NCBI GenBank assembly: GCA_001695595.3
Contig: MBPM02000117.1
Coordinates: 110,439-174,438 of the forward strand
DNA: 64,000 nucleotides
Direction of reading: 5' to 3'
From: Plasmopara viticola
Lineage: Eukaryota > Oomycota > Peronosporomycetes > Peronosporales > Peronosporaceae
The notes under the pieces are model-generated. The model did no database searches and had not been told where the DNA came from. It saw nothing but the letters and a program-made list of their open reading frames with translations. This document shows positions 2,591-64,000 of the stretch, piece after piece. A program made the position numbers and the translations under genes. Each line of letters starts with the position of its first letter. Within the stretch, counting starts at the first letter, position 1.

Positions 2591-3721
2591 TCAACGCAGG
2601 AGCCGGTCTCGAATGTGCCGTTTGAGCTCCACTTGTGGCGCAAAGATGTAGATTAGGTTGGAGTGGTCACAGAATAGCTTGAATACCCACCGACGGAGTA
2701 GTATAGTCGAGATTCGTACAGGCTTGGATGATAGAAATAGCTTTCTTTTCCACAATCTATTATCCTCGCTGGTGGTCCTTGATATTTCCACGTTTGCAGA
2801 CAATCATGTTATGAGGTTGCTTGTCAACCGAAAGAGAGCTGTCCCACTCGCGCACCAGGGTCACGATGAAGTATCCATCCAGACTTGCGTCGGTAAAAAC
2901 ACAGACGTCATCGTTTTCACCAGGAAATGATCGCAGCGCCGCGGCAGAGATCAGTGACAGCACGTCATGGTACACGGCCTCTTCCTCTGGTGTCCACCCC
3001 AGGGCGACGTTGATATCATTTCGGCTGCGTCGACCGATCTTCTTGCGCTCTGCATCTAGTTTCGACTGCAGAGGCGCAACCGTACGTGGGTAGTCCACTA
3101 GTGAGTCATGCAGCCAGTTGGACGCGCAAACGAAGTACTGGAGCTTGAACATGGTGCCCGGGAGGGGCAGCGTTGATAACGCATGCACTCGCCCTGGATC
3201 ATGACGCCAGTCGTCGCCCGAGATCAGTCTGCCACACCAGATAATTGAAGTTTGGTAGAAAGAGCTCTTAGAAAGATTCAGCTTGAGATTATGCTGGACC
3301 ATTAGCTGGAAAAACGCCTTCAGCGCTTGCAGCAAGTCCTCCATGTTGTCGACGAGTAGAATCACATCGTCCATCCACACTATTGCGTGGTGTGGTATCA
3401 GGGATGCAAGCTCACTCTGCATCGTCGCCCAAATTTGCAAAGAGGAGTCGACAGCACCTTGAGGAACGCGAGTGGGCGTGAAAAATCTCTCGTTCACATC
3501 AATTTCTGGCTATCTTCTGCAAGAAGGAGCTGCCGGAATCCATCGTTCATGTCGAATGAAGCAAATGTCTTGCTCTCGGCAAAGTCTTCCAGCATCTGAT
3601 GTAAGCGCGCCGTACTTGGCATCGTACCAGCTATAGGCACCGTTCTGGCGTTATCCGGGCGGTAGTCGATTGTTAGCCGGAATTTGTCAGCAGTACCCGG
3701 TTTACGCACCGGAACGGTCAC
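2591..3721 (-). pseudogene. gypsy reverse transcriptase/RNase H, broken
   Basis: The part at 3494-3721 reads VPVRKPG...FRLTIDYRPDNART and SFDMNDGFRQLLL, the fingers/palm motifs of Ty3/gypsy RT. The next frame (2760-3497) has FTPTRVPQGAVDS and the catalytic box IVWMDDVILLVD. Further on, an RNase H-like segment carries VCVFTDASLDGY. A last frame (2591-2803) has FKLFCDHSNLIYIF, matching the FxxxTDHxxLxYI motif near the end of gypsy RNase H with the T replaced. At least two frame changes interrupt the domain. Confidence 0.8.
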
Positions 3722-47814: not shown

Positions 47815-47976
47815 GTGAACTACATACAAATCAGGTAGCTTAAGTATAACCCACAAATAAAATTACTTCCAAATATTTCTTCTCCTACACAATCGTCTCC
47901 ACTCTACAAGTGCAGACTTTCTTTGCACTCATTAAAGCCTTTCCTTTCTCATTCAGTTCTCAACCGAATTCAACAG
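47815..47976 (+). repeat. probable copia LTR (right end clear, left end approximate)
   Basis: The right end is AATTCAACA, followed at once by GGTTATGAGCCCAAG. That closely resembles the half-tRNA(iMet) primer-binding site of Drosophila copia-type elements (GGTTATGGGCCCAG). The left end is placed at TGTGAAC only because it begins TG, and there is no second LTR to confirm it. Confidence 0.45.
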
Positions 47977-47979
47977 GTT

Positions 47980-48610
47980 ATGAGCCCAAGCACGATGTCC
48001 TCTGTCCAAGATACCACTACCAAGATCTCAATTCACAAATTTGATGGGGACAACTACGTGACATGGAATCGCTACATGCGTGTCGTGTTTTCTGACGTGG
48101 CACGTGGTCAACAGGAAAATCACTCACACCTTCGCCGACTCTCGCGCTATGGAGGAGCATGTCAAGCTGAGAAAATTGCGTTCGGTTTGATGCTTCTTCA
48201 CATGAGTGCAGACTATCATCAAGAAGTGGATGACTGCGAAGAAGCATGGGTCGCTTGGGCACGACTGGAAACGCTCTCAACGGGGCGGATTTTCCTGAAG
48301 CGACAGCTGTTTGGCGTGGCGATGGCGGGAGGCGGCAATGTGATGCATCATTGCAATGAGATTCTCAACATTAGCGCCAAGCTCAGCAGCATCGCGCTAA
48401 GATCGAGGACGAGGACGTGGCGATTTGCTTGTCGCGCAGCCTGTCCAAGAGCTTTGCAAACGTCGCTCTTAACTTGAAGATGAGAAGCGGGGATTTGCGA
48501 TCACTAGAAGTCGTGGAGATGCTTACAAATGAGCATATCAAGAGATAAAGGAACAAGACGACGACGGTGAAGTCTGAGAAAGCAACCATGTCCTTCAGTA
48601 CCGAGTGCAA
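47980..48610 (+). pseudogene. Ty1/copia gag fragment
   Basis: From the ATG at 47980 the frame reads [20 protein letters not shown], the N-terminal motif of copia gag (FxGxNYxxWxxxM). It continues with [18 protein letters not shown] and [14 protein letters not shown], the usual helical core. After about residue 140 a one-base shift moves the continuation ([18 protein letters not shown]) to another frame. Nothing of protease, integrase or RT follows, so the element is truncated. It lies between two PLE-derived fragments. Confidence 0.75.
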
Positions 48611-48639: not shown

Positions 48640-48760
48640 ATTCTATAGTCGGACTTGGACCTTACGGACATCTTACCGAAAGTCAAGCTTGAAATCTTTA
48701 CTTGGAAATCGTACTTGAAATCTATACTTGAATATCACACTTAAAAATCATGTCTGAATG
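48640..48760 (+). repeat. degenerate PLE pseudo-LTR minisatellite remnant
   Basis: TCTATAGTCGGACTTGGACC and ACGGACATCTTACCGAAAG match the pseudo-LTR of the terminal PLEs. They are followed by worn 13-bp CTTGAAATC-type units. Confidence 0.75.
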
Positions 48761-50930
48761 TCATAGTGTTTAGGTATTAGGGCATCGAGATCTGTCAAAC
48801 TGACATCAGAATCGCTAAATTGACATCCATTCCCGGCTCGATCAAGTCAATGATCTACAGGGGCTCGCCTTTTCGAGCATCGGACATAGGGAGTTCTTGT
48901 AGACCAACTAACAGTGCTGAAGATACGCCTGACACATCTTTAGCCGACGAAAGGGACATCTTTTTTAGTTTTTATTTGCGTTAAGGAAGCTGGGGCAGTC
49001 GCCGAGTTGCTTTTGAGAATTTGCTCTAAACCGGTCAAAAAGATCGTCTCAGCATATGCTTCTTTCTTGATTTTCTCTATGGCGAGTTTGCGTTCAACCA
49101 GAATTATTAGCTCTGATAGTTGGCGCTCTCGACCCTGGGGTGACCTAAAGCCAGGAAACATGTTGATGTTTGCTATATATGTATAACAAAACAAATAAAA
49201 AAGGAAATATATTGAAGTAGCTGTTTGAGATGCCGATTATAACCATGGCCAACAGTTTCGATCCATATTCTATTTATATATGACACAGTGTGTTACGCTC
49301 GTATAGCACCTTGTTGTATATTTCAAGGCACCATTCATACTTGCACTGAAATATTGCTTTGCTTTGGTTGCGTAGTGCCTCGTTTCAATTCGTCAATCGT
49401 GTATCAGTCTCCGATTAAAGCATAAAAAGCCGAAATTCAACACAGTGCGTGAGATGATACTTCAGCTAAGAATGGACTTCCGCTACCTTTCTTTGGTAGT
49501 ATTTGAGGCGCCTCCTATTTTAATGTGAAGCAGAGAGCTAACGGTCCTTTCTCCTTGCTTGTGTATCATTTTGTACAACATTTGCTTGCGGATCTACATA
49601 AAGGGTTATAATTTCTACCAGTTTAAACAGCTTCGTAACAAAGCGTAATCACACAAAGTGTGAGCATACAAATGTCAAGTCGAAATGAGAAAGGGCACGA
49701 GTGGCCAGCCAGTTTTCTCATTCACCATTTCGCCACCAAAAAGACAAGCAGATACTGAGTAACTTTGCAAACACCAAGAGAGCGGGCTTTGTACATATAA
49801 GCTCGGCACGTGGCCCTGAGGTGGAATGGGTTACTATCAATAGATACCAAGCAAGAAAACTGTATGAGTTACCGCGTTTCTCATGCTTACCATCATAAGC
49901 TGATCTCGCGTTTATCATAAAAGGATTGGATTTCTCAACGCTAGTGAAACTCTCACCGACTTCAGCAATCAACAAAAGGATGCACATGGAGCAATTTTTC
50001 CGCCTAGCTTATCTCCGAAAACGCATTTTTTCAGAAAGTAGAAGCGATTCGCGACTGTTTCCGTTCCGGCTACGTGGAACACTAAGAAGAATCATTAGTC
50101 GAGCTTGGGCATAAAGAGCAAGAGTTTGTTCGCACGGTTGACGGCCTCAAATATAAGCTTCACACTCGGTCGCTCAAGAACCACACCCCATGTGCTATCC
50201 AACTGTCCACATTGCACACCGGACTTTCCAAAGTTTAATCACAATTTTTGTAATCACCCCAAATATGACAAGAAGCTGACTAGTGAATTGCGCTTGGCTA
50301 TCCTCACCTGGATATGGAGTTGGGCGATGGTGAATTTGCTGTAATTCAACGAGTAGAACGTCAGTCCTCACCTTTTTTTCGACAATTTTAGAATCCTTGC
50401 AAGCTTATTTGACGAGCGTGGGTGAAATGCGTTAAATCTTGATGACGGCATTAGCTATTCTGATAGGGAAGACAACACCGAGATTCATCGTAATGAGGTT
50501 GCTTTGCGACAAGAGATCAATAAGCCGAAGACAATTGGAATTGTCAAGAAAGTCTGACTCAACGATGAGATGGGAAAGACTGCTTGACCTAATTGTCGCT
50601 GCAATCTGAGTGAAGTTACGAGTTTGAGAGCGCATCTTGTCACTGCAAGCAGAGACCTCGAATCCTAGGGTGCGAGTTTTACCCATTCCTTCCTGCTTTG
50701 TAGTTTAGGGTTTGTGTTTAGGTTAAAAGCCCAAAGTCGAGTCGAGAACGATTTTGCTAAAGTGTGTAAATGGATGCGTTTATATTAGACTGCAGTGACC
50801 GTTTCGCAGTTTTTTCTTCAGTAGACTAAAAAAGAGAAGTATGCTAATTAAAGGTAAGTAAACTTTTGTAGACCAAATGTAGCAGACCCGCAATTGAATT
50901 CGTTGTCGTCCAATCATTTGAGTTTCTGAA
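48761..50930. other. subtelomeric stretch, decayed fragments only
   Basis: No intact gene. Short minus-strand frames at 48940-49194 and 49718-49987 have no recognisable domain. A possible leucine-rich-repeat remnant is listed at 50432-50686. Near 50702-50725 there are a few telomere-like units (TTTAGGG, TTTAGG), which may be a worn interstitial tract. Confidence 0.4.
50432..50686 (-). pseudogene. possible leucine-rich-repeat remnant
   Basis: The frame contains IAATIRSSSLSHLIVESDFL then CLRLIDLLSQSNLITMNLG. This has the ~28-residue spacing of ribonuclease-inhibitor-type leucine-rich repeats (L..L.L, N, helix L...L). It is a single fragment with no neighbours, so weakly supported. Confidence 0.3.
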
Positions 50931-50965
50931 GTTTAGGGTTTAGGGTTTAGGGTTTAGGGTTTAGG
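50931..50965 (+). repeat. short interstitial telomere tract (about five TTTAGGG units)
   Basis: TTTAGGG units in the same orientation as the terminal array, immediately left of the first PLE. Probably the former chromosome end onto which copy 1 was attached. Confidence 0.9.
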
Positions 50966-51012
50966 ATTTATTAAATTATGCAAGTTACTACACAAACTTA
51001 ATTATTCCTAAA

Positions 51013-51081
51013 GAATAGTCCGAAATGATCCGATTGACTAATTCTTTCGCTGGTTTGCTTCTTCAGTAGGACTTGTTATTC
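51013..51081 (-). ncRNA. hammerhead-ribozyme-like fold, left pseudo-LTR of copy 1
   Basis: Minus strand: closing arms GAATA/GTCC and GGACTATTC pair. Between them lie CTGAAGA (fits CUGANGA), a short GC..GC helix, GAAA and GTC in type I hammerhead order, over 69 nt. Helices II and III are very short, so activity is unproven. Confidence 0.5.
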
Positions 51082-51116
51082 TATAGTTGGACTTGGCCCT
51101 TACGGACATCTTACCA

Positions 51117-51290
51117 AAACTCTAGCTTGAAATTCATACTTGAAATTCATACTTGAAATTCATACTTGAAATTCATACTTGAATTTCATACTTGAATTTC
51201 ATACTTGAATTTCATACTTGAATTTCATACTTGAATTTCATACTTGAATTTCATACTTGAATTTCATACTTGAATTTCATACTTGAAATT
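51117..51290 (+). repeat. 13-bp minisatellite (CTTGAAATTCATA / CTTGAATTTCATA)
   Basis: About 13 units. GAAATTC-type units come first, then GAATTTC-type, ending CTTGAAATTTGTACTAGGG. Confidence 0.95.
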
Positions 51291-51374
51291 TGTACTAGGG
51301 TTTAGGGTTTACTCCCCATCGGCTGTACAATCTTGTATTAAGGCTGCAGTCGACGGGGCAGTTTTCGGAAGTCG

Positions 51375-53170
51375 CTAAGGACACAGAAGCGTCTTGAGAG
51401 TTGGAGGCTTGAGGTAGCAGATTTTAACTTGCGTTCCGAGTGCCTTTTCCAGCTCATCGGTCAGTAGTATAGACCGTAGTCTGCTTCTTGAAAGTCCATT
51501 TGGGTCGTATTGGAGCTTGAAAACTATAGGTGCTGTAGATGACGTGTTGCGTGATGACGTAGTGTCGTCGAGCGCCTGTCTGAACAGCGGTTGCAGTATT
51601 CTCGGAGTATATCCTCGGTCAAGTAGCCGCGCATAGAGTTGTTTGACGATTCGTTTAAAGTCACGATATCGAACATTCTGTTTGCGGTATTTACGGACTT
51701 GGCCAATGATTAGTCCTTTTAGAACACCAGGTGGATGGGCGCTATTAGCAGGAATATACAGGTACAAATTCAGACTTTTCTGATATGTTCTTGTGTATAT
51801 CCTTTGTTTGTCCCGAATGATTCGTAGGTTTAGAAACACAGCTTCATCTTTGTCGATAGAGCTTGTGAATCGTAGCTTAGACCGCCGGGTAAATGTTGCT
51901 AACATGCGCTGGAAGCTATATGGCTCGGTGCTCGGACTCCACAATGTGAAGATGTCATCGATGTAGCGTTTGTAGTAAACTACATGTCGCGAGAATTCTG
52001 TAAGTAGAATCTCTTCGATGTGAGCCACGTAGAGGGAAGCGAATGCCGGTGCCACCGGTGTTCCCATAGCCGTTCCACGCAATTGGCGCCAGCATGAGTC
52101 TCCAAAGGTAAAGTAATTGTTGTGCATTACTACTTGGAGTCCAGACAGAATTGCGTTTTCCCATGGATGACCCCGTATACGTTCCGCGATTGCTTTGATA
52201 GCGTTGATAATCGGAATATTGGTGTAGAGAGATTCTACGTCGATTGTGATCAACAGCGTATCAGGCGGGAGTATCAGGTCCGGGAGGTCTGTCAATAGCT
52301 GGTCTGAGTCGCGTATATAGGATTTAGTGGATCTATAAAAGGGTTGAAGTTGAAAATCTAACCACTTTGAAAGTCCTTCCAGTATACTTGCGCTATTGGA
52401 TACAATGGGTCGAATACAGAGTTTAGGTTTGTGTATTTTTGCTAATGCGTAAAACACATTCAACCTTGACTCTTCTAGTTTCGCCACAATGATCCGTGTT
52501 GTGTCCCAGTCAGTACGATAGGCATATGTCTTTGCCATGTTTCTGTACCAAGTGCGAACTTTTGTCCGCACAAGCCGGGTTAATGCTTCGACTGGAGCGC
52601 ATTGCAGCTCGTATATTGACTTATCTGAAAGATGGTCAATACACAGTCTAACATAATGCTCCGTTGTAAAAAGAGCCGGCCCTAAGTTCTTATCAGTAAG
52701 GATTACTTTAAGATCTGGGCGGCTTCTTAGGAGCTGAAACGTGTTCCATTGTCTCGAGTTAAGGTTCCTGAGTTTCCTCGGTTCCCATGTCTCGCGACTA
52801 ATGTTGTCTTGAACACGTGTGAGTATCGTTTCGATTGAAGCCGGTGCTGGTTTCGGTTGGAACGATGGGTTCGGAACATAAATCTTGCGATTATATGATC
52901 CTTGATGGTTCCCAAACTGTGCGGAGAGGCGAACTTTCCGTATGAAGTCTGGGAGTGCAGCATGAAGATCGGGCGGTCGGAGAGGTCGAGGGGTCGGGCA
53001 GAATCTTAAGTTAAGACCCAGAAGGCGGTTCAGAGCAGGGGGAGTAGCAATTGCAGAAGGAACAAAGTTATGAAAAGCTAAGTTCTTTGCATAGCTATTA
53101 ACCTCCCTTGTACTGCGACTAGCAAATAGTGCCAGTGCATTCCTACTATCTGATCTGTCTACTTGGATTG
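51375..53170 (-). CDS. PLE reverse transcriptase, copy 1 (no GIY-YIG; truncated C-terminus)
   Basis: The RT frame is open from the ORF1 overlap (DPIQVDRSDSRN near 53165) to a TAG at 51375. That stop is made by one substitution and removes 22 residues present in copies 2 and 3. Motifs: TDKNLGPALF (N-terminal), KIHKP, CIRPIVSNS, TIDVESLYTNIP, RGTAMGTPVAP and the catalytic YKRYIDDIF, all of Penelope type. The C-terminus ends at the thumb (PTLKTLLCP); no endonuclease domain follows. There is no ATG before the core, and the frame lies -1 relative to ORF1, so expression would need frameshifting or internal initiation. A role extending telomeric 3' ends is inferred from the context. Confidence 0.85.
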
Positions 53171-54082
53171 GGTCTTGCCTTTTGCGTTCCGCGCGCCTTT
53201 CTGCTTGTTGTTTTTCCCTGAATTCGACTTGGTGGGCGGCTTTCCGGACTTGGCGAGACCGGTAGCGCCCGCTTTTCCGTTTGCGCGTAGCCTTTCCTTT
53301 TGAGGCTTTGCCGATTTCTTCTGCTGCTGGGGCTTTGCAGTCTTCGTTATGCGCCGATCGGTGCCCCTTTGACGACCGGCGCTGTCGTTTAACGCTTCCT
53401 TGAGCCGCGACACTTGATTTTTCAGTGGTCGCAGCTCCTGTTGGATGCGCTTGTTGACGAGCTCCTGGACAGATGTTGCCATGGGCGTTTCTGATTCGAT
53501 GTCCATGGCTGTCGCTCGTTTGGCTTCTTTAGCGGCTTTGGCCCGTTCCTTAATGACTTGTTCCATCGCTAAGTCGTAGCGAAGTTGAGTCAGTCGTGTG
53601 TTAAGAAGGGCCTTGGCCATAAGGAAGTCAGTGACCGCCATCGAGTTTTGTCCATTAGGAGAAGTAATTGCACTTTCCCATGGCGGACCCGATGGCATAA
53701 AAAGGGTGTGAACATCGCAATAAAAAGAACTTATCTCTTTAATTGCATTAACCGATAATGTCTCAAGTTCAGTCTGAAGTAAATTCAGTTCAGCCGCCGT
53801 TGCAGTCTTAATGATTTCTGCCAACGACTTTTCGTTTTCAACGAGTTGCTGATTGAACTGGGCGCGCAAAGATGCAGCGCTATCGGTATTTTCGAGCTCT
53901 TTAGACACGTTCAAGGAAATCTTAGTCTTCACAGAGCGGGGCGGACCCTGCTCAAGGCGTTGAAGAGCTAGCTGCTTAGACTTGATTCTAGCAGTAAGAT
54001 TCCTGTAGCGTTTGATCGTGGAGTCGATGATGCTCAACACGTTTTGCGGCGGACTGCTGCGAGTCGGGTTACTCGGGTCCAT
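53159..54082 (-). CDS. PLE ORF1, basic coiled-coil protein, copy 1
   Basis: 307 residues from MDPSNPTRSSPPQNVLS. Residues ~15-50 and ~60-110 are helical with heptad-like spacing (TARIKSKQLALQRLEQ; LRAQFNQQLVENEKSLAEII). Residues 195-235 form another coiled coil. The last ~70 residues are rich in Lys/Arg/Gln (AKPQQQKKSAKPQKERLRAN), suiting nucleic-acid binding. Helical ORF1 proteins upstream of RT occur in other telomere-linked PLEs; the function here is inferred. The C-terminus overlaps the RT frame. An upstream open segment (54109-54483, MLPICNIKRDISRA) may be an N-terminal extension out of frame in this copy. Confidence 0.8.
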   Translation of the reverse strand: MDPSNPTRSSPPQNVLSIIDSTIKRYRNLTARIKSKQLALQRLEQGPPRSVKTKISLNVSKELENTDSAASLRAQFNQQLVENEKSLAEIIKTATAAELNLLQTELETLSVNAIKEISSFYCDVHTLFMPSGPPWESAITSPNGQNSMAVTDFLMAKALLNTRLTQLRYDLAMEQVIKERAKAAKEAKRATAMDIESETPMATSVQELVNKRIQQELRPLKNQVSRLKEALNDSAGRQRGTDRRITKTAKPQQQKKSAKPQKERLRANGKAGATGLAKSGKPPTKSNSGKNNKQKGARNAKGKTQSK

Positions 54083-54858
54083 CCTTAAGTGTAGTAACCT
54101 AGTTTCGATTAGGCTAGGTCGGATGTGAGTGGCGAACAGCCGGCTGTTGTGTGCACGGTCTGTTGTTCGTCGCGGTCGGCCGGTCGGCTCAGTCGGACGT
54201 TGGTCGTGGATCTTGTCGACTTAGGACCAAGGCTTGAAGCCGGCCGTTTTTTGGTCGGCCAGGGCTTGAGGGTAGGACTTGGGACCGGTCGGTTTGTTGG
54301 TCGACCGGTGACTTGATCGTGTCCGGATCTTGAACTTCGCACTTGGTCGGGTCCTTGGTCGGGTCCTAAGTCGGGTCTTGGTCGGGTCCTTGGTCGTCCT
54401 TTGGATCTTGGCCGTCGGATACCAACAATCTTTTGACGTATTGCCCTACTTATGTCCCGTTTTATGTTGCATATGGGTAGCATTAACGGATAGGTTGATA
54501 TCGAGAACTAGCGCAAGGCTTATGGGAAAAAGCCAGGTCTAGGGGATTATAACTTCTCCGCCTACCTCCCCGGTCACACTTTCAGGTTTTACGTAAACCA
54601 CGGCACTATTTCTGTTCGATACGGAGACGCACTAGGCTCACATATCCAGGGTGCTGCTCACTCACACTCCTGTGTGCCCGCAGAGTCAAAAATCCCTTAT
54701 GGGATAGACTTCTCCGCAAATGAGAACTCCGATAAGCGTTACAATAAATTGCAAGCACGGTGCTCAAGGGCACGGGTTTTTCTAACCTAATTAAAAATAA
54801 AAAGGTTTAGGATTTATTGAATTATGCAAGTTACTACACAAACTTAATTATTCCTAAA

Positions 54859-54927
54859 GAATAGTCCGAAATGATCCGATTGACTAATTCTTTCGCTGGT
54901 TTGCTTCTTCAGTAGGACTTGTTATTC
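54859..54927 (-). ncRNA. hammerhead-ribozyme-like fold, right pseudo-LTR of copy 1
   Basis: Same 69-nt arrangement of pairing arms and CTGAAGA/GAAA/GTC core as at 51013-51081. Confidence 0.5.
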
Positions 54928-54964
54928 TATAGTTGGACTTGGCCCTTACGGACATCTCACTAAA

Positions 54965-55178
54965 ACTCTAACTTGAAATTCATACTTGAAATTCATACTT
55001 GAAATTCATACTTGAAAAGCATACTTGAAATTCATACTTGAATTTCACACTTGAATTTCATACTTGAATTTCACACTCGAATTTCATACTTGAATTTCAT
55101 ACTTGAATTTCATACTTGAATTTCATACTTGAATTTCATACTTGAATTTCATACTTGAATTTCATACTTGAAATTTGT
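54965..55178 (+). repeat. 13-bp minisatellite, right pseudo-LTR of copy 1
   Basis: About 16 units with a few variants (CTTGAAAAGCATA, CACACTTG). Runs straight into the telomere tract through TTTGTACTAGGG. Confidence 0.95.
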
Positions 55179-55180
55179 AC

Positions 55181-55345
55181 TAGGGTTTAGGGTTTAGGGT
55201 TTAGGGTTTAGGGTTTAGGGTTTAGGGTTTAGGGTTTAGGGTTTAGGGTTAGGGTTTAGGGTTTAGGGTTTTAGGGTTTAGGGTTTAGGGTTTAGGGTTT
55301 AGGGTTTAGGGTTTAGGGTTTAGGGTTTAGGGTTTAGGGGGTTTA
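55181..55345 (+). repeat. interstitial telomere tract between copies 1 and 2
   Basis: About 23 TTTAGGG units including one TTAGGG and one TTTTAGGG variant. Ends AGGGGGTTTATTAAATTATG, where copy 2 begins. Confidence 0.97.
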
Positions 55346-55387
55346 TTAAATTATGCAAGTTACTACACAAACTTAATTATTCCTAAA

Positions 55388-55456
55388 GAATAGTCCGAAA
55401 TGATCCGATTGACTAATTCTTTCGCTGGTTTGCTTCTTCAGTAGGACTTGTTATTC
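55388..55456 (-). ncRNA. hammerhead-ribozyme-like fold, left pseudo-LTR of copy 2
   Basis: Identical core and pairing arms to the other copies. Confidence 0.5.
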
Positions 55457-55496
55457 TATAGTTGGACTTGGCCCTTACGGACATCTTACCAAAACT

Positions 55497-55680
55497 CTAA
55501 CTTGAAATTCATACTTGAAATTCATACTTGAAATTCATACCTGAAATTCACACTAGAATTTCATACTTGAATTTCATACTTGAATTTCATACTTGAATTT
55601 CATACTTGAATTTCATACTTGAATTTCATACTTGAATTTCATACTTGAATTTCATACTTGAATTTCATACTTGAAATTTG
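55497..55680 (+). repeat. 13-bp minisatellite, left pseudo-LTR of copy 2
   Basis: About 14 units, GAAATTC-type first then GAATTTC-type, then TTTGTACTAGGG and two telomere units before the RT stop codon. Confidence 0.95.
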
Positions 55681-55696
55681 TACTAGGGTTTAGGGT

Positions 55697-57493
55697 TTAC
55701 TCCCCATCGGCTGTACAATCTTGTATTAAGGCTGCAGTCGACGGGGCAGTTTTCGGAAGTCGCGAAGGACACAGAAGCGTCTTGAGAGTTGGAGGCTTGA
55801 GGTAGCAGATTTTAACTTGCGTTCCGAGTGCCTTTTCCAGCTCATCGGTCAGTAGTATAGACCGTAGTCTGCTTCTTGAAAGTCCATTTGGGTCGTATTG
55901 GAGCTTGAAAACTATAGGTGCTGTAGATGACGTGTTGCGTGATGACGTAGTGTCGTCGAGCGCCTGTCTGAACAGCGGTTGCAGTATTCTCGGAGTATAT
56001 CCTCGGTCAAGTAGCCGCGCATAGAGTTGTTTGACGATTCGTTTAAAGTCACGATATCGAACATTCTGTTTGCGGTATTTACGGACTTGGCCAATGATTA
56101 GTCCTTTTAGAACACCAGGTGGATGGGCGCTATTAGCAGGAATATACAGGTACAAATTCAGACTTTTCTGATATGTTCTTGTGTATATCCTTTGTTTGTC
56201 CCGAATGATTCGTAGGTCTAGAAACACAGCTTCATCTTTGTCGATAGAGCTTGTGAATCGTAGCTTAGACCGCCGGGTAAATGTTGCTAACATGCGCTGG
56301 AAGCTATATGGCTCGGTGCTCGGACTCCACAATGTGAAGATGTCATCGATGTAGCGTTTGTAGTAAACTACATGTCGCGAGAATTCTGTAAGTAGAATCT
56401 CTTCGATGTGAGCCACGTAGAGGGAAGCGAATGCCGGTGCCACCGGTGTTCCCATAGCCGTTCCACGCAATTGGCGCCAGCATGAGTCTCCAAAGGTAAA
56501 GTAATTGTTGTGCATTACTACTTGGAGTCCAGACAGAATTGCGTTTTCCCATGGATGACCCCGTATACGTTCCGCGATTGCTTTGATAGCGTTGATAATC
56601 GGAATATTGGTGTAGAGAGATTCTACGTCGATTGTGATCAACAGCGTATCAGGCGGGAGTATCAGGTCCGGGAGGTCTGTCAATAGCTGGTCTGAGTCGC
56701 GTATATAGGATTTAGTGGATCTATAAAAGGGTTGAAGTTGAAAATCTAACCACTTTGAAAGTCCTTCCAGTATACTTGCGCTATTGGATACAATGGGTCG
56801 AATACAGAGTTTAGGTTTGTGTATTTTTGCTAATGCGTAAAACACATTCAACCTTGACTCTTCTAGTTTCGCCACAATGATCCGTGTTGTGTCCCAGTCA
56901 GTACGATAGGCATATGTCTTTGCCATGTTTCTGTACCAAGTGCGAACTTTTGTCCGCACAAGCCGGGTTAATGCTTCGACTGGAGCGCATTGCAGCTCGT
57001 ATATTGACTTATCTGAAAGATGGTCAATACACAGTCTAACATAATGCTCCGTTGTAAAAAGAGCCGGCCCTAAGTTCTTATCAGTAAGGACTACTTTAAG
57101 ATCTGGGCGGCTTCTTAGGAGCTGAAACGTGTTCCATTGTCTCGAGTTAAGGTTCCTGAGTTTCCTCGGTTCCCATGTCTCGCGACTAATGTTGTCTTGA
57201 ACACGTGTGAGTATCGTTTCGATTGAAGCCGGTGCTGGTTTCGGTTGAAACGATGGGTTCGGAACATAAATCTTGCGATTATATGATCCTTGATGGTTCC
57301 CAAACTGTGCGGAGAGGCGAACTTTCCGTATGAAGTCTGGGAGTGCAGCATGAAGATCGGGCGGTCGGATAGGTCGAGGGGTCGGGCAGAATCTTAGGTT
57401 AAGACCCAGTAAGCGGTTCAGAGCAGGGGGAGTAGCAACTGCAGAAGGAACAAAGTTATGAAAAGCTAAGTTCTTTGCATAGCTATTAACTCC
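55697..57493 (-). pseudogene. PLE reverse transcriptase, copy 2 (N-terminus frameshifted)
   Basis: Open from 57493 to the stop at 55697. Carries the full set of Penelope RT motifs and a C-terminus 22 residues longer than copy 1 (ends PSTAALIQDCTADGE). Compared with copy 3 one base is missing in CTCCCTAG (about 57491), which puts a TAG in frame and cuts the link to the upstream frame. Core RT motifs are undamaged. Confidence 0.8.
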
Positions 57494-57540
57494 CTAGTAC
57501 TGCGACTAGCAAATAGTGCCAGTGCATTCCTACTATCTGA

Positions 57541-58880
57541 CTATCTACTTGGATCGGGTCTTGCCTTTCGCGTTCCGCGCGCCTTTCTGCTTGTTGTTTT
57601 TTCCTGAATTCGACTTGGTGGGCGGCTTTCCGGACTTGGCGAGACCGGTAGCGCCCGCTTTTCCGTTTGCGCGTAGCCTTCCTTTTGAGGCTTTGCCGAT
57701 TTCTTCTGCTGCTGGGGCTTTGCAGTCTTCGTTATGCGCCGATCGGTGCCCCTTTGACGACCGGCGCTGTCGTTTAACGCTTCCTTGAGCCGCGACACTT
57801 GATTTTTCAGTGGTCGCAGCTCCTGTTGGATGCGCTTGTTGACGAGCTCCTGGACAGAGTTGCCATGGGCGTTTCTGATTCGATGTCCATGGCTGTCGCT
57901 CGTTTGGCTTCCTTAGCGGCTTTGGCCCGTTCCTTAATGACTTGTTCAATCGCTAAGTCGTAGCGAAGTTGAGTCAGTCGTGTGTTAAGGAGAGCCTTGG
58001 CCATTAGGAAGTCAGTGACCGCCATCGAGTTTTGTCCATTAGGAGAAGTAATTGCACTTTCCCATGGCGGACCCGATGGCATAAAAAGGGTGTGAACATC
58101 GCAATAAAAAGAACTTATCTCTTTAATTGCATTAACCGATAATGTCTCAAGTTCAGTCTGAAGTAAATTCAGTTCAGCCGTCGTTGCAGTCTTAATGATT
58201 TCTGCCAACGACTTTTCGTTTTCAACGAGTTGCTGATTGAACTGGGCGCGCAAAGATGCAGCGCTATCGGTATTTTCGAGCTCTTTAGACACGGTCAAGG
58301 AAATCTTAGTCTTCACAGAGCGGGGCGGACCCTGCTCAAGGCGTTGAAGAGCTAGCTGCTTAGATTTGATTCTAGCAGTAAGATTCCTGTAGCGTTTGAC
58401 CGTGGAGTCGATGATGCTCAACACGTTTTGCGGCGGACTGCTGCGAGTCGGGTTACTCGGGTCCATCCTTAAGTGTAGTAACCTAGTTTCGATTAGGCTA
58501 GGTCGGATGTTGAGTGGCGAACAGCCGGCTGTTGTGTGCACGGTCTGTTGTTCGTCGCGGTCGGCCGGTCGGCTCAGTCGGACGTTGGTCGTGGATCTTG
58601 TCGACTTAGGACCAAGGCTTGAAGCCGGCCGTTTTTTGGTCGGCCAGCTGGCTTGAGGGTAGGACTTGGGACCGGTCGGTTTGTTGGTCGACCGGTGACT
58701 TGATCGTGTCCGGATCTTGAACTTCGCACTTGGTCGGGTCCTTGGTCGGGTCCTTGGTCGGGTCCTAAGTCGGGTCTTGGTCGGTCCTTGTCGTCCTTTG
58801 GATCTTGGCCGTCGGATACCAACAATCTTTTGACGTATTGCCCTACTTATGTTCCGTTTTATGTTGAATATGGGTAGCAC
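57541..58880 (-). pseudogene. PLE ORF1, copy 2 (frameshifted, with open N-terminal extension)
   Basis: From 58880 the frame is open through an Arg/Thr/Pro-rich extension (RTRPRTRPRTRP, made by the GGTCGGGTCC repeats) into MDPSNP at 58466 and on to 57807. There a one-base deletion near 57857 shifts it. The lost C-terminal basic part continues in another frame down to 57541. Only in this copy is the extension in frame with ORF1, so whether it belongs to the real protein is unclear. Confidence 0.7.
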
Positions 58881-59255
58881 TAACGGATAGGTTGATATCG
58901 AGAACTAGCGCAAGGCTTATGGGAAAAAGCCAGGTCTAGGGGATTATAACTTCTCCGCCTACCTCCCCGGTCACACTTTCAGGTTTTACGTAAACCACGG
59001 CACTATTTCTGTTCGATACGGAGACGCACTAGGCTCACGTATCCAGGGTGCTGCTCACTCACACTCCTGTGTGCCCGCAGAGTCAAAAATCCCTTATGGG
59101 ATAGACTTCTCCGCAAATGAGAACTCCGATAAGCGTTACAATAAATTGCAAGCACGGTGCTCAAGGGCACGGGTTTTTCTAACCTAATTAAAAATAAAAA
59201 GGTTTAGGATTTATTAAATTATGCAAGTTACTACACAAACTTAATTATTCCTAAA

Positions 59256-59324
59256 GAATAGTCCGAAATGATCCGATTGACTAATTCTTTCGCTGGTTTG
59301 CTTCTTCAGTAGGACTTGTTATTC
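59256..59324 (-). ncRNA. hammerhead-ribozyme-like fold, right pseudo-LTR of copy 2
   Basis: Same arrangement as in the other five blocks. Confidence 0.5.
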
Positions 59325-59359
59325 TATAGTTGGACTTGGCCCTTACGGACATCTCACCA

Positions 59360-59547
59360 AAACTCTAACTTGAAATTCATACTTGAAATTCATACTTGAA
59401 ATTCATACTTGAAATTCACACTAGAATTTCATACTTGAATTTCATACTTGAATTTCATACTTGAATTTCATACTTGAATTTCATACTTGAATTTCATACT
59501 TGAATTTCATACTTGAATTTCATACTTGAATTTCATACTTGAAATTT
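59360..59547 (+). repeat. 13-bp minisatellite, right pseudo-LTR of copy 2
   Basis: About 14 units, GAAATTC-type then GAATTTC-type, ending in the telomere tract. Confidence 0.95.
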
Positions 59548-59551
59548 GTAC

Positions 59552-59686
59552 TAGGGTTTAGGGTTTAGGGTTTAGGGTTTAGGGTTTAGGGTTTAGGGTT
59601 TAGGGTTTAGGGTTTAGGGTTTAGGGTTTAGGGTTTAGGGTTTAGGGTTTAGGGTTTAGGGTTTAGGGTTTAGGGTTTAGGGTTTA
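59552..59686 (+). repeat. interstitial telomere tract between copies 2 and 3
   Basis: About 19 uniform TTTAGGG units. Joins copy 3 as AGGGTTTAAATTATGCAAG, without the TTTATT present at the start of copies 1 and 2. Confidence 0.97.
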
Positions 59687-59725
59687 AATTATGCAAGTTA
59701 CTACACAAACTTAATTATTCCTAAA

Positions 59726-59794
59726 GAATAGTCCGAAATGATCCGATTGACTAATTCTTTCGCTGGTTTGCTTCTTCAGTAGGACTTGTTATTC
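59726..59794 (-). ncRNA. hammerhead-ribozyme-like fold, left pseudo-LTR of copy 3
   Basis: Same arms and core as the other blocks. Confidence 0.5.
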
Positions 59795-59826
59795 TATAGT
59801 TGGACTTGGACCTTACGGACATCTTA

Positions 59827-59940
59827 CCAAAACTCTAACTTGAAATTCATACTTGAAATTCATACTTGAAACTCATACTTGAATTTCATACTTGAATTTC
59901 ATACTTGAATTTCATACTTGAATTTCATACTTGAAATTTG
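59827..59940 (+). repeat. 13-bp minisatellite, left pseudo-LTR of copy 3
   Basis: About 8 units, fewer than in the left blocks of copies 1 and 2, with the same GAAATTC-then-GAATTTC order. Confidence 0.95.
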
Positions 59941-59956
59941 TACTAGGGTTTAGGGT

Positions 59957-61801
59957 TTACTCCCCATCGGCTGTACAATCTTGTATTAAGGCTGCAGTCG
60001 ACGGGGCAGTTTTCGGAAGTCGCGAAGGACACAGAAGCGTCTTGAGAGTTGGAGGCTTGAGGTAGCAGATTTTAACTTGCGGTCCGAGTGCCTTTTCCAG
60101 CTCATCGGTCAGTAGTATAGACCGTAGTCTGCTTCTTGAAAGTCCATTTGGGTCGTATTGGAGCTTGAAAACTATAGGTGCTGTAGATGACGTGTTGCGT
60201 GATGACGTAGTGTCGTCGAGCGCCTGTCTGAACAGCGGTTGCAGTATTCTCGGAGTATATCCTCGGTCAAGTAGCCGCGCATAGAGTTGTTTGACGATTC
60301 GTTTAAAGTCACGATATCGAACATTCTGTTTGCGGTATTTACGGACTTGGCCAATGATTAGTCCTTTTAGAACACCAGGTGGATGAGCGCTATTAGCAGG
60401 AATATACAGGTACAAATTCAGACTTTTCTGATATGTTCTTGTGTATATCCTTTGTTTGTCCCGAATGATTCGTAGGTCTAGAAACACAGCTTCATCTTTG
60501 TCGATAGAGCTTGTGAATCGTAGCTTAGACCGCCGGGTAAATGTTGCTAACATGCGCTGGAAGCTATATGGCTCGGTGCTCGGACTCCACAATGTGAAGA
60601 TGTCATCGATGTAGCGTTTGTAGTAAACTACATGTCGCGAGAATTCTGTAAGTAGAATCTCTTCGATGTGAGCCACGTAGAGGGAAGCGAATGCCGGTGC
60701 CACCGGTGTTCCCATAGCCGTTCCACGCAATTGGCGCCAGCATGAGTCTCCAAAGGTAAAGTAATTGTTGTGCATTACTACTTGGAGACCAGACAGAATT
60801 GCGTTTTCCCATGGATGACCCCGTATACGTTCCGCGATTGCTTTGATAGCGTTGATAATCGGAATATTGGTGTAGAGAGATTCTACGTCGATTGTGATCA
60901 ACAGCGTATCAGGCGGGAGTATCAGGTCCGGGAGGTCTGTCAATAGCTGGTCTGAGTCGCGTATATAGGATTTAGTGGATCTATAAAAGGGTTGAAGTTG
61001 AAAATCTAACCACTTTGAAAGTCCTTCCAGTATACTTGCGCTATTGGATACAATGGGTCGAATACAGAGTTTAGGTTTGTGTATTTTTGCTAATGCGTAA
61101 AACACATTCAACCTTGACTCTTCTAGTTTCGCCACAATGATCCGTGTTGTGTCCCAGTCAGTACGATAGGCATATGTCTTTGCCACGTTTCTGTACCAAG
61201 TGCGAACTTTTGTCCGCACAAGCCGGGTTAATGCTTCGACTGGAGCGCATTGCAGCTCGTATATTGACTTATCTGAAAGATGGTCAATACACAGTCTAAC
61301 ATAATGCTCCGTTGTAAAAAGAGCCGGCCCTAAGTTCTTATCAGTAAGGACTACTTTAAGATCTGGGCGGCTTCTTAGGAGCTGAAACGTGTTCCATTGT
61401 CTCGAGTTAAGGTTCCTGAGTTTCCTCGGTTCCCATGTCTCGCGACTAATGTTGTCTTGAACACGTGTGAGTATCGTTTCGATTGAAGCCGGTGCTGGTT
61501 TCGGTTGAAACGATGGGTTCGGAACATAAATCTTGCGATTATATGATCCTTGATGGTTCCCAAACTGTGCGGAGAGGCGAACTTTCCGTATGAAGTCTGG
61601 GAGTGCAGCATGAAGATCGGGCGGTCGGATAGGTCGAGGGGTCGGGCAGAATCTTAGGTTAAGACCCAGTAAGCGGTTCAGAGCAGGGGGAGTAGCAACT
61701 GCAGAAGGAACAAAGTTATGAAAAGCTAAGTTCTTTGCATAGCTATTAATCTCCCTAGTACTGCGACTAGCAAATAGTGCCAGCGCATTCCTACTATCTG
61801 A
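59957..61801 (-). CDS. Penelope-type reverse transcriptase without endonuclease, copy 3
   Basis: 614 codons are open from just after the ORF1 stop to the TAA-type end at 59957, with no ATG before the catalytic core. N-terminal part: NSYAKNLAFHNFVPSA, LLGLNLRFCPTPRP, KVRLSAQFGNH, then TDKNLGPALF. RT core (positions from 61219): KIHKP 45-49, RPIVS 54-58, DVESLYTNI 111-119, GTAMGTPVAP 156-165, YKRYIDDIF 190-198 with the catalytic D195-D196. The thumb ends with LKTLLCPSRLP, where canonical Penelope proteins go on to a GIY-YIG endonuclease; here only ~20 residues remain. Endonuclease-lacking PLEs are known to use telomere ends as primers (Athena and Coprina groups). It shares its frame with ORF1, so stop readthrough would give one ~920-residue protein. 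Confidence 0.9.
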   Translation of the reverse strand, partial: SDSRNALALFASRSTREINSYAKNLAFHNFVPSAVATPPALNRLLGLNLRFCPTPRPIRPPDLHAALPDFIRKVRLSAQFGNHQGSYNRKIYVPNPSFQPKPAPASIETILTRVQDNISRETWEPRKLRNLNSRQWNTFQLLRSRPDLKVVLTDKNLGPALFTTEHYVRLCIDHLSDKSIYELQCAPVEALTRLVRTKVRTWYRNVAKTYAYRTDWDTTRIIVAKLEESRLNVFYALAKIHKPKLCIRPIVSNSASILEGLSKWLDFQLQPFYRSTKSYIRDSDQLLTDLPDLILPPDTLLITIDVESLYTNIPIINAIKAIAERIRGHPWENAILSGLQVVMHNNYFTFGDSCWRQLRGTAMGTPVAPAFASLYVAHIEEILLTEFSRHVVYYKRYIDDIFTLWSPSTEPYSFQRMLATFTRRSKLRFTSSIDKDEAVFLDLRIIRDKQRIYTRTYQKSLNLYLYIPANSAHPPGVLKGLIIGQVRKYRKQNVRYRDFKRIVKQLYARLLDRGYTPRILQPLFRQALDDTTSSRNTSSTAPIVFKLQYDPNGLSRSRLRSILLTDELEKALGPQVKICYLKPPTLKTLLCPSRLPKTAPSTAALIQDCTADGE

Positions 61802-62728
61802 CTATCTACTTGGATCGGGTCTTGCCTTTCGCGTTCCGCGCGCCTTTCTGCTTGTTGTTTTTTCCTGAATTCGACTTGGTGGGCGGCTTTCCGGACTTGG
61901 CGAGACCGGTAGCGCCCGCTTTTCCGTTTGCGCGTAGCCTTCCTTTTGAGGCTTTGCCGATTTCTTCTGCTGCTGGGGCTTTGCAGTCTTCGTTATGCGC
62001 CGATCGGCGCCCCTTTGACGACCGGCGCTGTCGTTTAACGCTTCCTTGAGCCGCGACACTTGATTTTTCAGTGGTCGCAACTCCTGTTGGATGCGCTTGT
62101 TGACGAGCTCCTGGACAGAGGTTGCCATGGGCGTTTCTGATTCGATGTCCATGGCTGTCGCTCGTTTGGCTTCCTTAGCGGCTTTGGCCCGTTCCTTAAT
62201 GACTTGTTCAATCGCTAAGTCGTAGCGAAGTTGAGTCAGTCGTGTGTTAAGGAGAGCCTTGGCCATTAGGAAGTCAGTGACCGCCATCGAGTTTTGTCCA
62301 TTAGGAGAAGTAATTGCACTTTCCCATGGCGGACCCGATGGCATGAAAAGGGTGTGAACATCGCAATAAAAAGAACTTATCTCTTTAATTGCATTGACCG
62401 ATAATGTCTCAAGTTCAGTCTGAAGTAAATTCAGTTCAGCCGTCGTTGCAGTCTTAATGATTTCTGCCAACGACTTTTCGTTTTCAACGAGTTGCTGATT
62501 GAACTGGGCGCGCAAAGATGCAGCGCTATCGGTATTTTCGAGCTCTTTAGACACGGTCAAGGAAATCTTAGTCTTCACAGAGCGGGGCGGACCCTGCTCA
62601 AGGCGTTGAAGAGCTAGCTGCTTAGATTTGATTCTAGCAGTAAGATTCCTGTAGCGTTTGACCGTGGAGTCGATGATGCTCAACACGTTTTGCGGCGGAC
62701 TGCTGCGAGTCGGGTTACTCGGGTCCAT
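61802..62728 (-). CDS. PLE ORF1, basic coiled-coil protein, copy 3 (intact)
   Basis: 308 residues from MDPSNP to a single TAG (61802-61804). Same helical N-terminal two thirds as copy 1. The C-terminal ~60 residues differ because one T is missing (CCTTCC against CCTTTCC in copy 1), so the tail reads GYAQTEKRALPVSPSPESRP and ends KARPDPSR. This shift puts ORF1 in the RT frame, and the codons after the TAG (SDSRNALALFASRS) continue directly into the RT N-terminus. The tail resembles the fused tail of the old copy at 46.3 kb (SPRSKSRPPSRSQ), so this frame may be ancestral. Likely an RNA-binding partner of the RT. Confidence 0.82.
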   Translation of the reverse strand: MDPSNPTRSSPPQNVLSIIDSTVKRYRNLTARIKSKQLALQRLEQGPPRSVKTKISLTVSKELENTDSAASLRAQFNQQLVENEKSLAEIIKTATTAELNLLQTELETLSVNAIKEISSFYCDVHTLFMPSGPPWESAITSPNGQNSMAVTDFLMAKALLNTRLTQLRYDLAIEQVIKERAKAAKEAKRATAMDIESETPMATSVQELVNKRIQQELRPLKNQVSRLKEALNDSAGRQRGADRRITKTAKPQQQKKSAKPQKEGYAQTEKRALPVSPSPESRPPSRIQEKTTSRKARGTRKARPDPSR

Positions 62729-63509
62729 CCTTAAGTGTAGTAACCTAGTTGTAATCAGGCTAGGTCGGATGTTGAGTGGCGTAACAGCCGGCTGTTTCGA
62801 GCACGGTCTGTTGTTCGTCGCGGTCGGCCGGTCGGCTCAGTCGGACGCTGGTCGTGGATCTTGTCGACTTAGGACCAAGGCTTGAAGCCGGCCGTTTTTT
62901 GGTCGGCCAGCTGGCTTGAGGGTAGGACTTGAGACCGGTCGGTTTGTTGGTCGACCGGTGACTTGATCGTGTCCGGATCTTGAACTTCGCACTTGGTCGG
63001 GTCCTTGGTCGGGTCCTAAGTCGGGTCTTGGTCGGGTCCTTGGTCGTCCTTTGGATCTTGGCCGTCGGATACCAACAATCTTTTGACGTATTGCCCTACT
63101 TATGTTCCGTTTTATGTTGAATATGGGTAGCACTAACGGATAGGTTGATATCGAGAACTAGCGCAAGGCTTATGGGAAAAAGCCAGGTCTAGGGGATTAT
63201 AACTTCTCCGCCTACCTCCCCGGTCACACTTTCAGGTTTTACGTAAACCACGGCACTATTTCTGTTCGATACGGAGACGCACTAGGCTCACGTATCCAGG
63301 GTGCTGCTCACTCACACTCCTGTGTGCCCGCAGAGTCAAAAATCCCTTATGGGATAGACTTCTCCGCAAATGAGAACTCCGATAAGCGTTACAATAAATT
63401 GCAAGCACGGTGCTCAAGGGCACGGGTTTTTCTAACCTAATTAAAATATAAAAAGGTTTAGGATTTATTAAATTATGCAAGTTACTACACAAACTTAATT
63501 ATTCCTAAA

Positions 63510-63578
63510 GAATAGTCCGAAATGATCCGATTGACTAATTCTTTCGCTGGTTTGCTTCTTCAGTAGGACTTGTTATTC
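63510..63578 (-). ncRNA. hammerhead-ribozyme-like fold, right pseudo-LTR of copy 3
   Basis: Same arms and core; the block nearest the chromosome end. Confidence 0.5.
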
Positions 63579-63613
63579 TATAGTTGGACTTGGCCTTACG
63601 GACATCTTACCAA

Positions 63614-63724
63614 AACTCTAACTTGAAATTCATACTTGAAATTCATACTTGAATTTCATACTTGAATTTCATACTTGAATTTCATACTTGAATTTCATAC
63701 TTGAATTTCATACTTGAAATTTGT
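63614..63724 (+). repeat. 13-bp minisatellite, right pseudo-LTR of copy 3
   Basis: About 8 units, GAAATTC-type then GAATTTC-type, joined to the telomere by TTTGTACTAGG. Confidence 0.95.
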
Positions 63725-63727
63725 ACT

Positions 63728-64000
63728 AGGTTAGGGTTTAGGGTTTAGGGTTTAGGGTTTAGGGTTTAGGGTTTAGGGTTTAGGGTTTAGGGTTTAGGGT
63801 TTAGGGTTTAGGGTTTAGGGTTTAGGGTTTAGGGTTTAGGGTTTAGGGTTTAGGGTTTAGGGTTTAGGGTTTAGGGTTTAGGGTTTAGGGTTTAGGGTTT
63901 AGGGTTTAGGGTTTAGGGTTTAGGGTTTAGGGTTTAGGGTTTAGGGTTTAGGGTTTAGGGTTTAGGGTTTAGGGTTTAGGGTTTAGGGTTTAGGGTTTAG
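63728..64000 (+). repeat. terminal telomere array (TTTAGGG)n
   Basis: About 38 uninterrupted units up to the last base of the window, G-rich strand running 5' to 3' outward. The unit is that of Phytophthora telomeres. The window either ends at the chromosome end or is cut inside the array. Confidence 0.97.

What the first reader, a model, noticed from the sequence alone, without database searches (positions are those of the whole stretch)
50931..64000. Head-to-tail array of endonuclease-less Penelope elements interleaved with telomere repeats at an oomycete chromosome end
Seen: three near-identical ~4.2-kb elements, all with coding strand pointing away from the end, each followed on its outer side by a TTTAGGG tract and the last by the terminal array. 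The RT has Penelope motifs and no GIY-YIG domain. Known: endonuclease-deficient PLEs (Athena in rotifers, Coprina in fungi) attach to telomere ends in this orientation, because the G-rich 3' overhang can prime on an RNA ending in CCCTAAA-like sequence. Inferred: this end grows by alternating retroelement attachment and telomerase addition, a Drosophila-HeT-A-like mix working alongside telomerase. The sequence does not show whether this family in oomycetes has been described.
Basis: partly seen in the sequence, partly recalled or inferred. Interest (0 to 1): 0.92.

Follow-up and report, generated by a model that had tools for sequence, protein, structure and literature searches.

The report
Retroelements stacked on chromosome ends
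At the chromosome ends of what appears to be the grapevine downy mildew, copying elements related to telomerase seem to attach one after another to the tip, with ordinary telomere repeats added between them, so that two related enzymes may lengthen the same ends in turn.

Summary
Confirmed and extended. The window is the right end of contig C117 of a 92.94-Mb, 358-contig genome that matches Plasmopara viticola. Three ~4.2-kb elements, coding away from the tip, alternate with TTTAGGG tracts; a decayed fourth lies inboard. Each has a direct repeat at both ends, ORF1, and a reverse transcriptase without GIY-YIG whose predicted fold matches telomerase best. Genome-wide, 32 of 32 RT-DNA matches of 1 kb or more lie within 27 kb of a contig end in one orientation. 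Two further diverged families share the tracts. Separate end-attachments explain the array better than local duplication: the three units are closer to copies on other contigs than to one another; near-identical copies have different flanks, tract lengths and 3' junction registers; 5'-truncated copies are capped by telomere repeats. A telomerase-type domain is encoded in the genome. The kind is known (endonuclease-deficient Penelope-like elements: Athena, Terminons). Possibly new: terminal repeats with telomere seeds on both edges, mostly seed-ended copies, and LTR-like similarity of the two repeats of a copy. The key 2007 and 2017 papers were not held, so novelty of these points is unproven.

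The parts
50931..50970 (+). innermost TTTAGGG tract of the array (about 5.7 units); 3' attachment point of unit 1
50967..51302 (-). unit 1, terminal repeat on the 3' (inner) side, 13-bp minisatellite; its outer edge is a telomere seed next to the RT stop
51375..53528 (-). unit 1 RT frame, 717 codons stop to stop; stops early compared with the 739-codon frame of ten copies elsewhere
53159..54082 (-). unit 1 ORF1 (307 aa), overlaps the RT frame by 367 nt in the -1 frame
54813..55185 (-). unit 1, terminal repeat on the 5' (outer) side
55181..55339 (+). TTTAGGG tract between units 1 and 2 (159 bp)
55340..55690 (-). unit 2, 3' terminal repeat
55697..57493 (-). unit 2 RT frame (598 codons stop to stop)
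57494..58470 (-). unit 2 ORF1 region, frame broken
59210..59558 (-). unit 2, 5' terminal repeat (2 edits from its own 3' repeat)
59552..59686 (+). TTTAGGG tract between units 2 and 3 (135 bp)
59684..59944 (-). unit 3, 3' terminal repeat; junction in another register (TTTAGGGTTTAAATTATG)
59957..61801 (-). unit 3 RT (614 aa; TDKNLGP and RYIDD motifs)
61802..62728 (-). unit 3 ORF1 (308 aa), C-terminal part in another frame than in unit 1
63464..63730 (-). unit 3, 5' terminal repeat (3 edits from its own 3' repeat)
63731..64000 (+). terminal TTTAGGG tract, runs to the last base of contig C117
44324..47678 (-). decayed older copy of the same family, same orientation (pieces 73-82% identical)
51036..51066 (-). 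hammerhead-core-like motif in the terminal repeat (also at 55411-55441 and in the other repeats); sequence resemblance only
   Evidence: no Rfam hammerhead hit

Best explanation
The array is a stack of endonuclease-deficient Penelope-like retroelements, each attached separately to a chromosome tip. The element RNA ends in telomere-complementary sequence; the G-rich 3' overhang anneals to it and primes reverse transcription, so the RNA's 3' end lands inboard and its 5' end faces out. The new tip ends either in a telomere seed that the element carries at the start of its terminal repeat, or in a truncation point; telomerase caps it with TTTAGGG, and that tract is the target of the next element. 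Three diverged families use such ends. Shown: anatomy, orientation, confinement of family A to contig ends, separate origin of neighbours, variable junction register, capped truncations, a telomerase-type domain in the genome. Inferred: priming by the overhang, telomerase as the capping enzyme, and that the RT is active.
For: Confinement and strand: 32 of 32 matches >=1 kb. Of 30 contigs on which tract patterns were listed, 27 hold an A, B or C match >=400 bp (tracts; elements). Separate additions: of 26 cores >3.3 kb, 17 have a partner on the same end and 0 of 17 has it as nearest relative (by one change only in two of the 17); window unit 1 is 17 differences from copies on C130/C46/C79 but 39 and 53 from its neighbours, unit 2 15 from C28 (26 and 39), unit 3 4 from C4 (26 and 53). 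Flanks: near-identical copies on C4/C22/C117, C46/C79/C130, C15/C329 and C14/C34/C292 have different tract lengths and share no inner flank except other A elements and short matches. 3' junctions: of 28, 11 keep TTTAGGATTTATT, 11 read TTTAGGGTTTATT, 6 are other; of 27 internal copies 25 read the first form and 0 the second (Fisher P 0.0003). The C4, C22 and C117 unit 3 cores differ by only 2-6 changes yet have three different junctions. 5' edges: of 50 tract edges read, 22 start at the A seed, 10 at the B seed, 1 at the C seed; at least 7 others follow a truncated A or B copy, e.g. C203, where a truncated A copy is capped by about five repeats and followed by a B copy. RT: pLDDT 92.7, telomerase the best structural match; pN/pS 0.43 among 19 open RT copies (14 synonymous, 19 other changes), binomial P 0.022. 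Telomerase RNA-binding domain at C25.
Against: None of the three window units has all frames intact. One family B copy is inverted (C130:120180-122028) and a 412-bp B fragment lies inside C25; diverged family C pieces on C95 and C79 also run the other way, and one lies on C3 (C3 length not read). C39:1-900 and C41:301-900 are telomeric and show no element. One A copy (C22) sits on non-telomeric DNA. Only one telomerase domain was looked for and one of its two matches holds a stop, perhaps an intron. No expression data, reads or activity test. Contig ends stand in for chromosome ends.
Confidence: 0.86

Rival explanations
1. Y'-like subtelomeric repeats: the units are spread by recombination between telomere tracts (break-induced replication, unequal exchange), not by new reverse transcription.
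For: Units are bounded by homologous tracts that could mediate exchange. Some copies on different ends are identical or nearly so (C46 and C79, 0 differences). C14 and C337 share an odd truncated 5' junction, so some arrays may be related by exchange.
Against: Near-identical copies have different 3' junction registers; at least 7 distinct 5' truncations are capped by telomere repeats, among them a 44-bp 3' end on C7, with a 54-bp one beside it capped by only about two repeats; a copy stands on non-telomeric sequence (C22); ten copies keep a 739-codon RT frame, and pN/pS is 0.43.
Confidence: 0.1
2. Assembly artefact: near-identical 4-kb repeats were misjoined at contig ends.
For: The assembly used PacBio reads of mean 8,072 bp (PMC6660063, passages), shorter than the 13-kb array.
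Against: The three units differ from one another by 26-53 changes, tracts differ in length, and similar alternation appears on many contigs. On C203 a truncated A copy, a short tract and the start of a B copy lie within a few hundred bases, inside one read.
Confidence: 0.03
3. Retroelements that cut into internal TTTAGGG stretches (as TRAS/SART are recalled to do in insects) rather than attaching to the tip.
For: Most junction edges border TTTAGGG.
Against: No endonuclease domain found; all 32 A matches >=1 kb face one way; truncated copies are capped by tracts and followed by other elements.
Confidence: 0.02

Closest known systems
Endonuclease-deficient Penelope-like elements at telomeres: Athena (bdelloid rotifers) and relatives in fungi, protists and plants (passages of PMC3846280, PMC6431247, PMC5537684; the name Coprina and the 2007 PNAS paper are recalled, not read)
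   Same: Two ORFs, 4-6 kb, no GIY-YIG, at chromosome ends, 5' ends capped by telomeric repeats, telomere-complementary sequence at the 3' end, head-to-tail or interspersed arrays.
   Different: Most outer edges here end at the element's own seed (33, one of them a solo repeat, against at least 7 truncated), whereas PMC6431247 says most Terminon copies are 5'-truncated; seeds stand on both edges of a repeat found at both ends of the element; three diverged families share one genome.
Terminons of Adineta vaga (passages of PMC6431247 and PMC12477314)
   Same: Telomere-complementary 3' end near a hammerhead-type motif; attachment to G-rich overhangs proposed.
   Different: No giant size or accessory genes seen here; the hammerhead resemblance is a core motif only and Rfam does not call it.
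HeT-A/TART/TAHRE of Drosophila (passages of PMC5537684)
   Same: Head-to-tail arrays at the tip, one orientation, several families; TART carries perfect non-terminal repeats (figure legend).
   Different: Non-LTR retrotransposons in a host without telomerase; here a telomerase domain is present and TTTAGGG tracts separate the units.
Yeast Y' elements (recalled)
   Same: Terminal units separated by telomere repeats.
   Different: Recalled to spread by recombination and to lack an RT of this kind.

Membership tests
Penelope-like elements (PLE) | RT of the PLE/TERT branch | tested here: inconclusive
   Predicted fold is closest to telomerase, but no named PLE reference could be put in the tree; the sequence search of solved structures gives group II intron-like RTs first; residues 1-230 alone had no clear match.
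Penelope-like elements (PLE) | N-terminal DKG-type motif before the RT core (recalled) | tested here: inconclusive
   D154 K155 N156 L157 G158 P159 are invariant in the 62 aligned sequences; that this equals the DKG motif rests on recall.
Penelope-like elements (PLE) | direct terminal repeats (pLTR) | tested here: met
   Present at both ends in families A, B and C.
Penelope-like elements (PLE) | hammerhead ribozyme in the terminal repeat | tested here: inconclusive
   CTGAWGA-hairpin-GAAA core in the terminal repeats of all three families; 102 hits on the sense strand of 311133 bases, at least 10 of them in family B coding DNA, against 3 on the other strand; no Rfam hammerhead match.
Endonuclease-deficient telomeric PLE (Athena type) | no GIY-YIG domain in the element | tested here: met
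   None at E<=1 in window proteins; none at E<=0.1 in the family C RT; family B only through its 99.8% relative P0061 (one search failed).
Endonuclease-deficient telomeric PLE (Athena type) | confined to chromosome ends in one orientation | tested here: met
   32 of 32 matches >=1 kb for family A; exceptions among B and C are told.
Endonuclease-deficient telomeric PLE (Athena type) | 5' ends capped by telomeric repeats, telomere-complementary 3' end | tested here: met
Telomerase-free retrotransposon telomere (HeT-A type) | host lacks telomerase | tested here: not met
   Telomerase RNA-binding domain PF12009, 60.2 bits at C25:506854-507210 (one TAA inside) and 26.7 bits at 507207-507365; the rest of the gene was not read.

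The most novel reading that the evidence does not exclude
The terminal repeat is a portable chromosome-end module that is rewritten at each attachment, as an LTR is. Both repeats of a new copy come from one template repeat, by template switching or on a circular RNA made by a hammerhead-like cut in the repeat, and the seeds on both edges of the repeat let it take the end from telomerase and hand it back. For: the two repeats of one element are closer than permuted pairs (A, 22 pairs: mean 19.8 edits against 39.6, 2 of 20000 permutations as low; B, 9 pairs: 10.3 against 17.0, 0 of 20000), while repeats facing each other across a tract are not (8 pairs: 55.0 against 46.4); in 11 of 22 A pairs the length difference is a non-zero multiple of 13 (lengths). 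Against: a repeat's own partner is its closest match in only 7 of 22 A pairs (7 of 9 in B, ties included), three A pairs differ by 52-64 edits, gene conversion could do the same, and no RNA data exist.
Probability: 0.27. Interest if true: 0.85.

Novelty: new member of a known kind. Interest (0 to 1): 0.62.

Why it matters
Athena-type PLEs are placed by others beside telomerase in RT trees (PMC5537684, passages). This genome offers many recent copies with open RT frames and readable junctions on most of the telomeric contigs found (27 of 30), in a host that keeps a telomerase-type domain. That makes the priming step, the hand-over to telomerase and the question of host benefit or parasitism directly testable in one species, and gives three diverged RTs for biochemistry.

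Tried and rejected

Literature: by title and start of abstract, the listings (capped) show no paper on telomeric Penelope-like elements in an oomycete; one search listed none. The P. viticola genome paper has 0 occurrences of telomer- and Penelope in its main text. The library holds open-licence papers only. Not held: the 2007 PNAS paper, the 2017 Terminon paper, the 2014 hammerhead paper, a 2021 PLE paper. So absence from print is not shown; I recall from the 2007 abstract that stramenopiles were included.
Full report
WHERE IT IS. The window is G000:C117:110439-174438, the last 64 kb of a 174438-b contig in a genome of 92937831 b and 358 contigs. The P. viticola INRA-PV221 paper gives 92.94 Mb and 358 scaffolds (PMC6660063, passages); the species is inferred from that match. 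Linkage maps give 17 groups (PMC11979753, passages), so about 34 ends are expected. Inboard lie ordinary genes: RCC1-like, PI3/PI4 kinase and an M16C/PreP protease.

ANATOMY. Read on the minus strand, each unit is terminal repeat, ORF1, RT, terminal repeat. Two further families at such ends, B (about 4.6 kb) and C (about 4.36 kb), have the same plan. In 5 of 8 copies examined the RT frame overlaps ORF1 by 181-397 nt, always in the -1 frame, in all three families; the other three have broken frames. Frameshifting or re-initiation is therefore likely (inferred). ORF1 of A is related to that of C (31% identity, E 2e-35) and weakly to that of B (23%, E 4e-6). The terminal repeat starts and ends with telomere-complementary sequence in A, B and C, although the repeats are otherwise unlike.

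MAP. Family A: 44 matches, a lower bound because only the best candidates are scored; 32 of 32 >=1000 bp, 34 of 36 >=500 bp and 36 of 38 >=200 bp are within 27 kb of a contig end on the expected strand. Limits: six of the 32 lie on contigs under 34 kb, where the distance test is empty; and the match at C337:1-1420, at the broken left edge of a 25-kb contig, was assigned by me to the right end, towards which that array runs. Family B: 31 matches, C: 19. Exceptions: an inverted B copy on C130, a B fragment inside C25, reversed diverged C pieces on C95 and C79, a 74% C piece on C3, and pieces under 100 bp elsewhere. Contig lengths for several B and C contigs were not read, so no fraction is given for them. 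Contigs with tract patterns in the listings: 30; 27 carry an A, B or C match >=400 bp; C39, C41 and C295 do not. The list was cut and the patterns miss some tracts (C22), so 30 is not all; tracts are not always at the contig end. On C117, C28, C22 and C319, which hold both young and diverged A copies, the diverged one is inboard.

ATTACHMENT OR RECOMBINATION. Neighbours are not nearest kin: 0 of 17, though by one change only for one copy on C11 and one on C130. Near-identical copies have different inner flanks and tract lengths; the matches seen there were another A copy beside both the C14 and C34 copies, a 40-bp match for C22-C117 and pieces of 39-145 bp for C46-C130; only 364 bp of flank was held for C329. 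3' junctions vary in register while internal copies never show the G form; 4 of the 28 junction edges have at most two TTTAGGG units beside them (C22, C28, C7, C130). In each register the joint can be read as a few bases of pairing between the G overhang and the RNA end (inferred). 5' truncations capped by telomere repeats: A on C203, C7 (two) and C319; B on C337, C60 and C7, the last two only about ten bases short of the seed. The script counted the C337:20442 edge as a B seed; it is a truncated B copy and is moved here, leaving 10 B seeds. Of the 22 A-seed edges one belongs to the solo repeat on C59.

TERMINAL REPEATS. Of 55 repeat edges found, 49 repeats with a readable outer edge were compared. 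Within 22 A elements the two repeats are closer than by permutation, as in 9 B elements; repeats facing each other across a tract are not closer (8 pairs). Own partner is closest in 7 of 22 A and 7 of 9 B pairs, ties included. In the 145-bp non-repetitive part the A effect is weaker, 0.45 against 0.64 edits, 70 of 20000. One B copy (C22) has an outer repeat 61-75 edits from every inner repeat and was kept in the mean. This is what LTR-like renewal would give; gene conversion is not excluded.

TELOMERASE. A telomerase RNA-binding domain is encoded at C25; the rest of that gene was not read. The tracts are regular TTTAGGG. Thus retroelement and telomere repeats alternate at the same tip. By length the window's array is about 95% element and 5% telomere repeat.

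VERDICT. Observation confirmed, interpretation supported. [quoted passage not shown] The three families, the genome-wide map and the junction evidence are what this report adds; the double-edged telomere seed and the renewed terminal repeats may be new but could not be checked against the papers that matter most.

Noticed in passing
window 47839-48477 (+): Fragment of a Copia-type gag (PF14223, E 8.4e-13) between the decayed copy and the array.
   Followed up: no
window 48640-48765: Isolated diverged piece of the terminal repeat with the 13-bp minisatellite, outside any unit.
   Followed up: no
G000:C22 about 9174 (left end): A young A copy joined at its 3' end to non-telomeric DNA, as if it had healed a broken end.
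   Followed up: partly
L031 (C130:122600-132147) and L047: An inverted family B copy whose 3' end carries only about 11 bases of telomere repeat, on which an A copy stands.
   Followed up: partly
L014 (C59:523788-524037): A solo terminal repeat between two telomere tracts, like a solo LTR.
   Followed up: partly
G000:C6:1833000-1850242: Four family B copies in a row near one contig end.
   Followed up: partly
window 2760-3497 (-): Partial RT (RVT_1, E 1.4e-11) near the inner edge of the window.
   Followed up: no
L050 (C32:246-845): Stretch about 74% identical to family C directly inside the telomere tract: perhaps a further subfamily.
   Followed up: no
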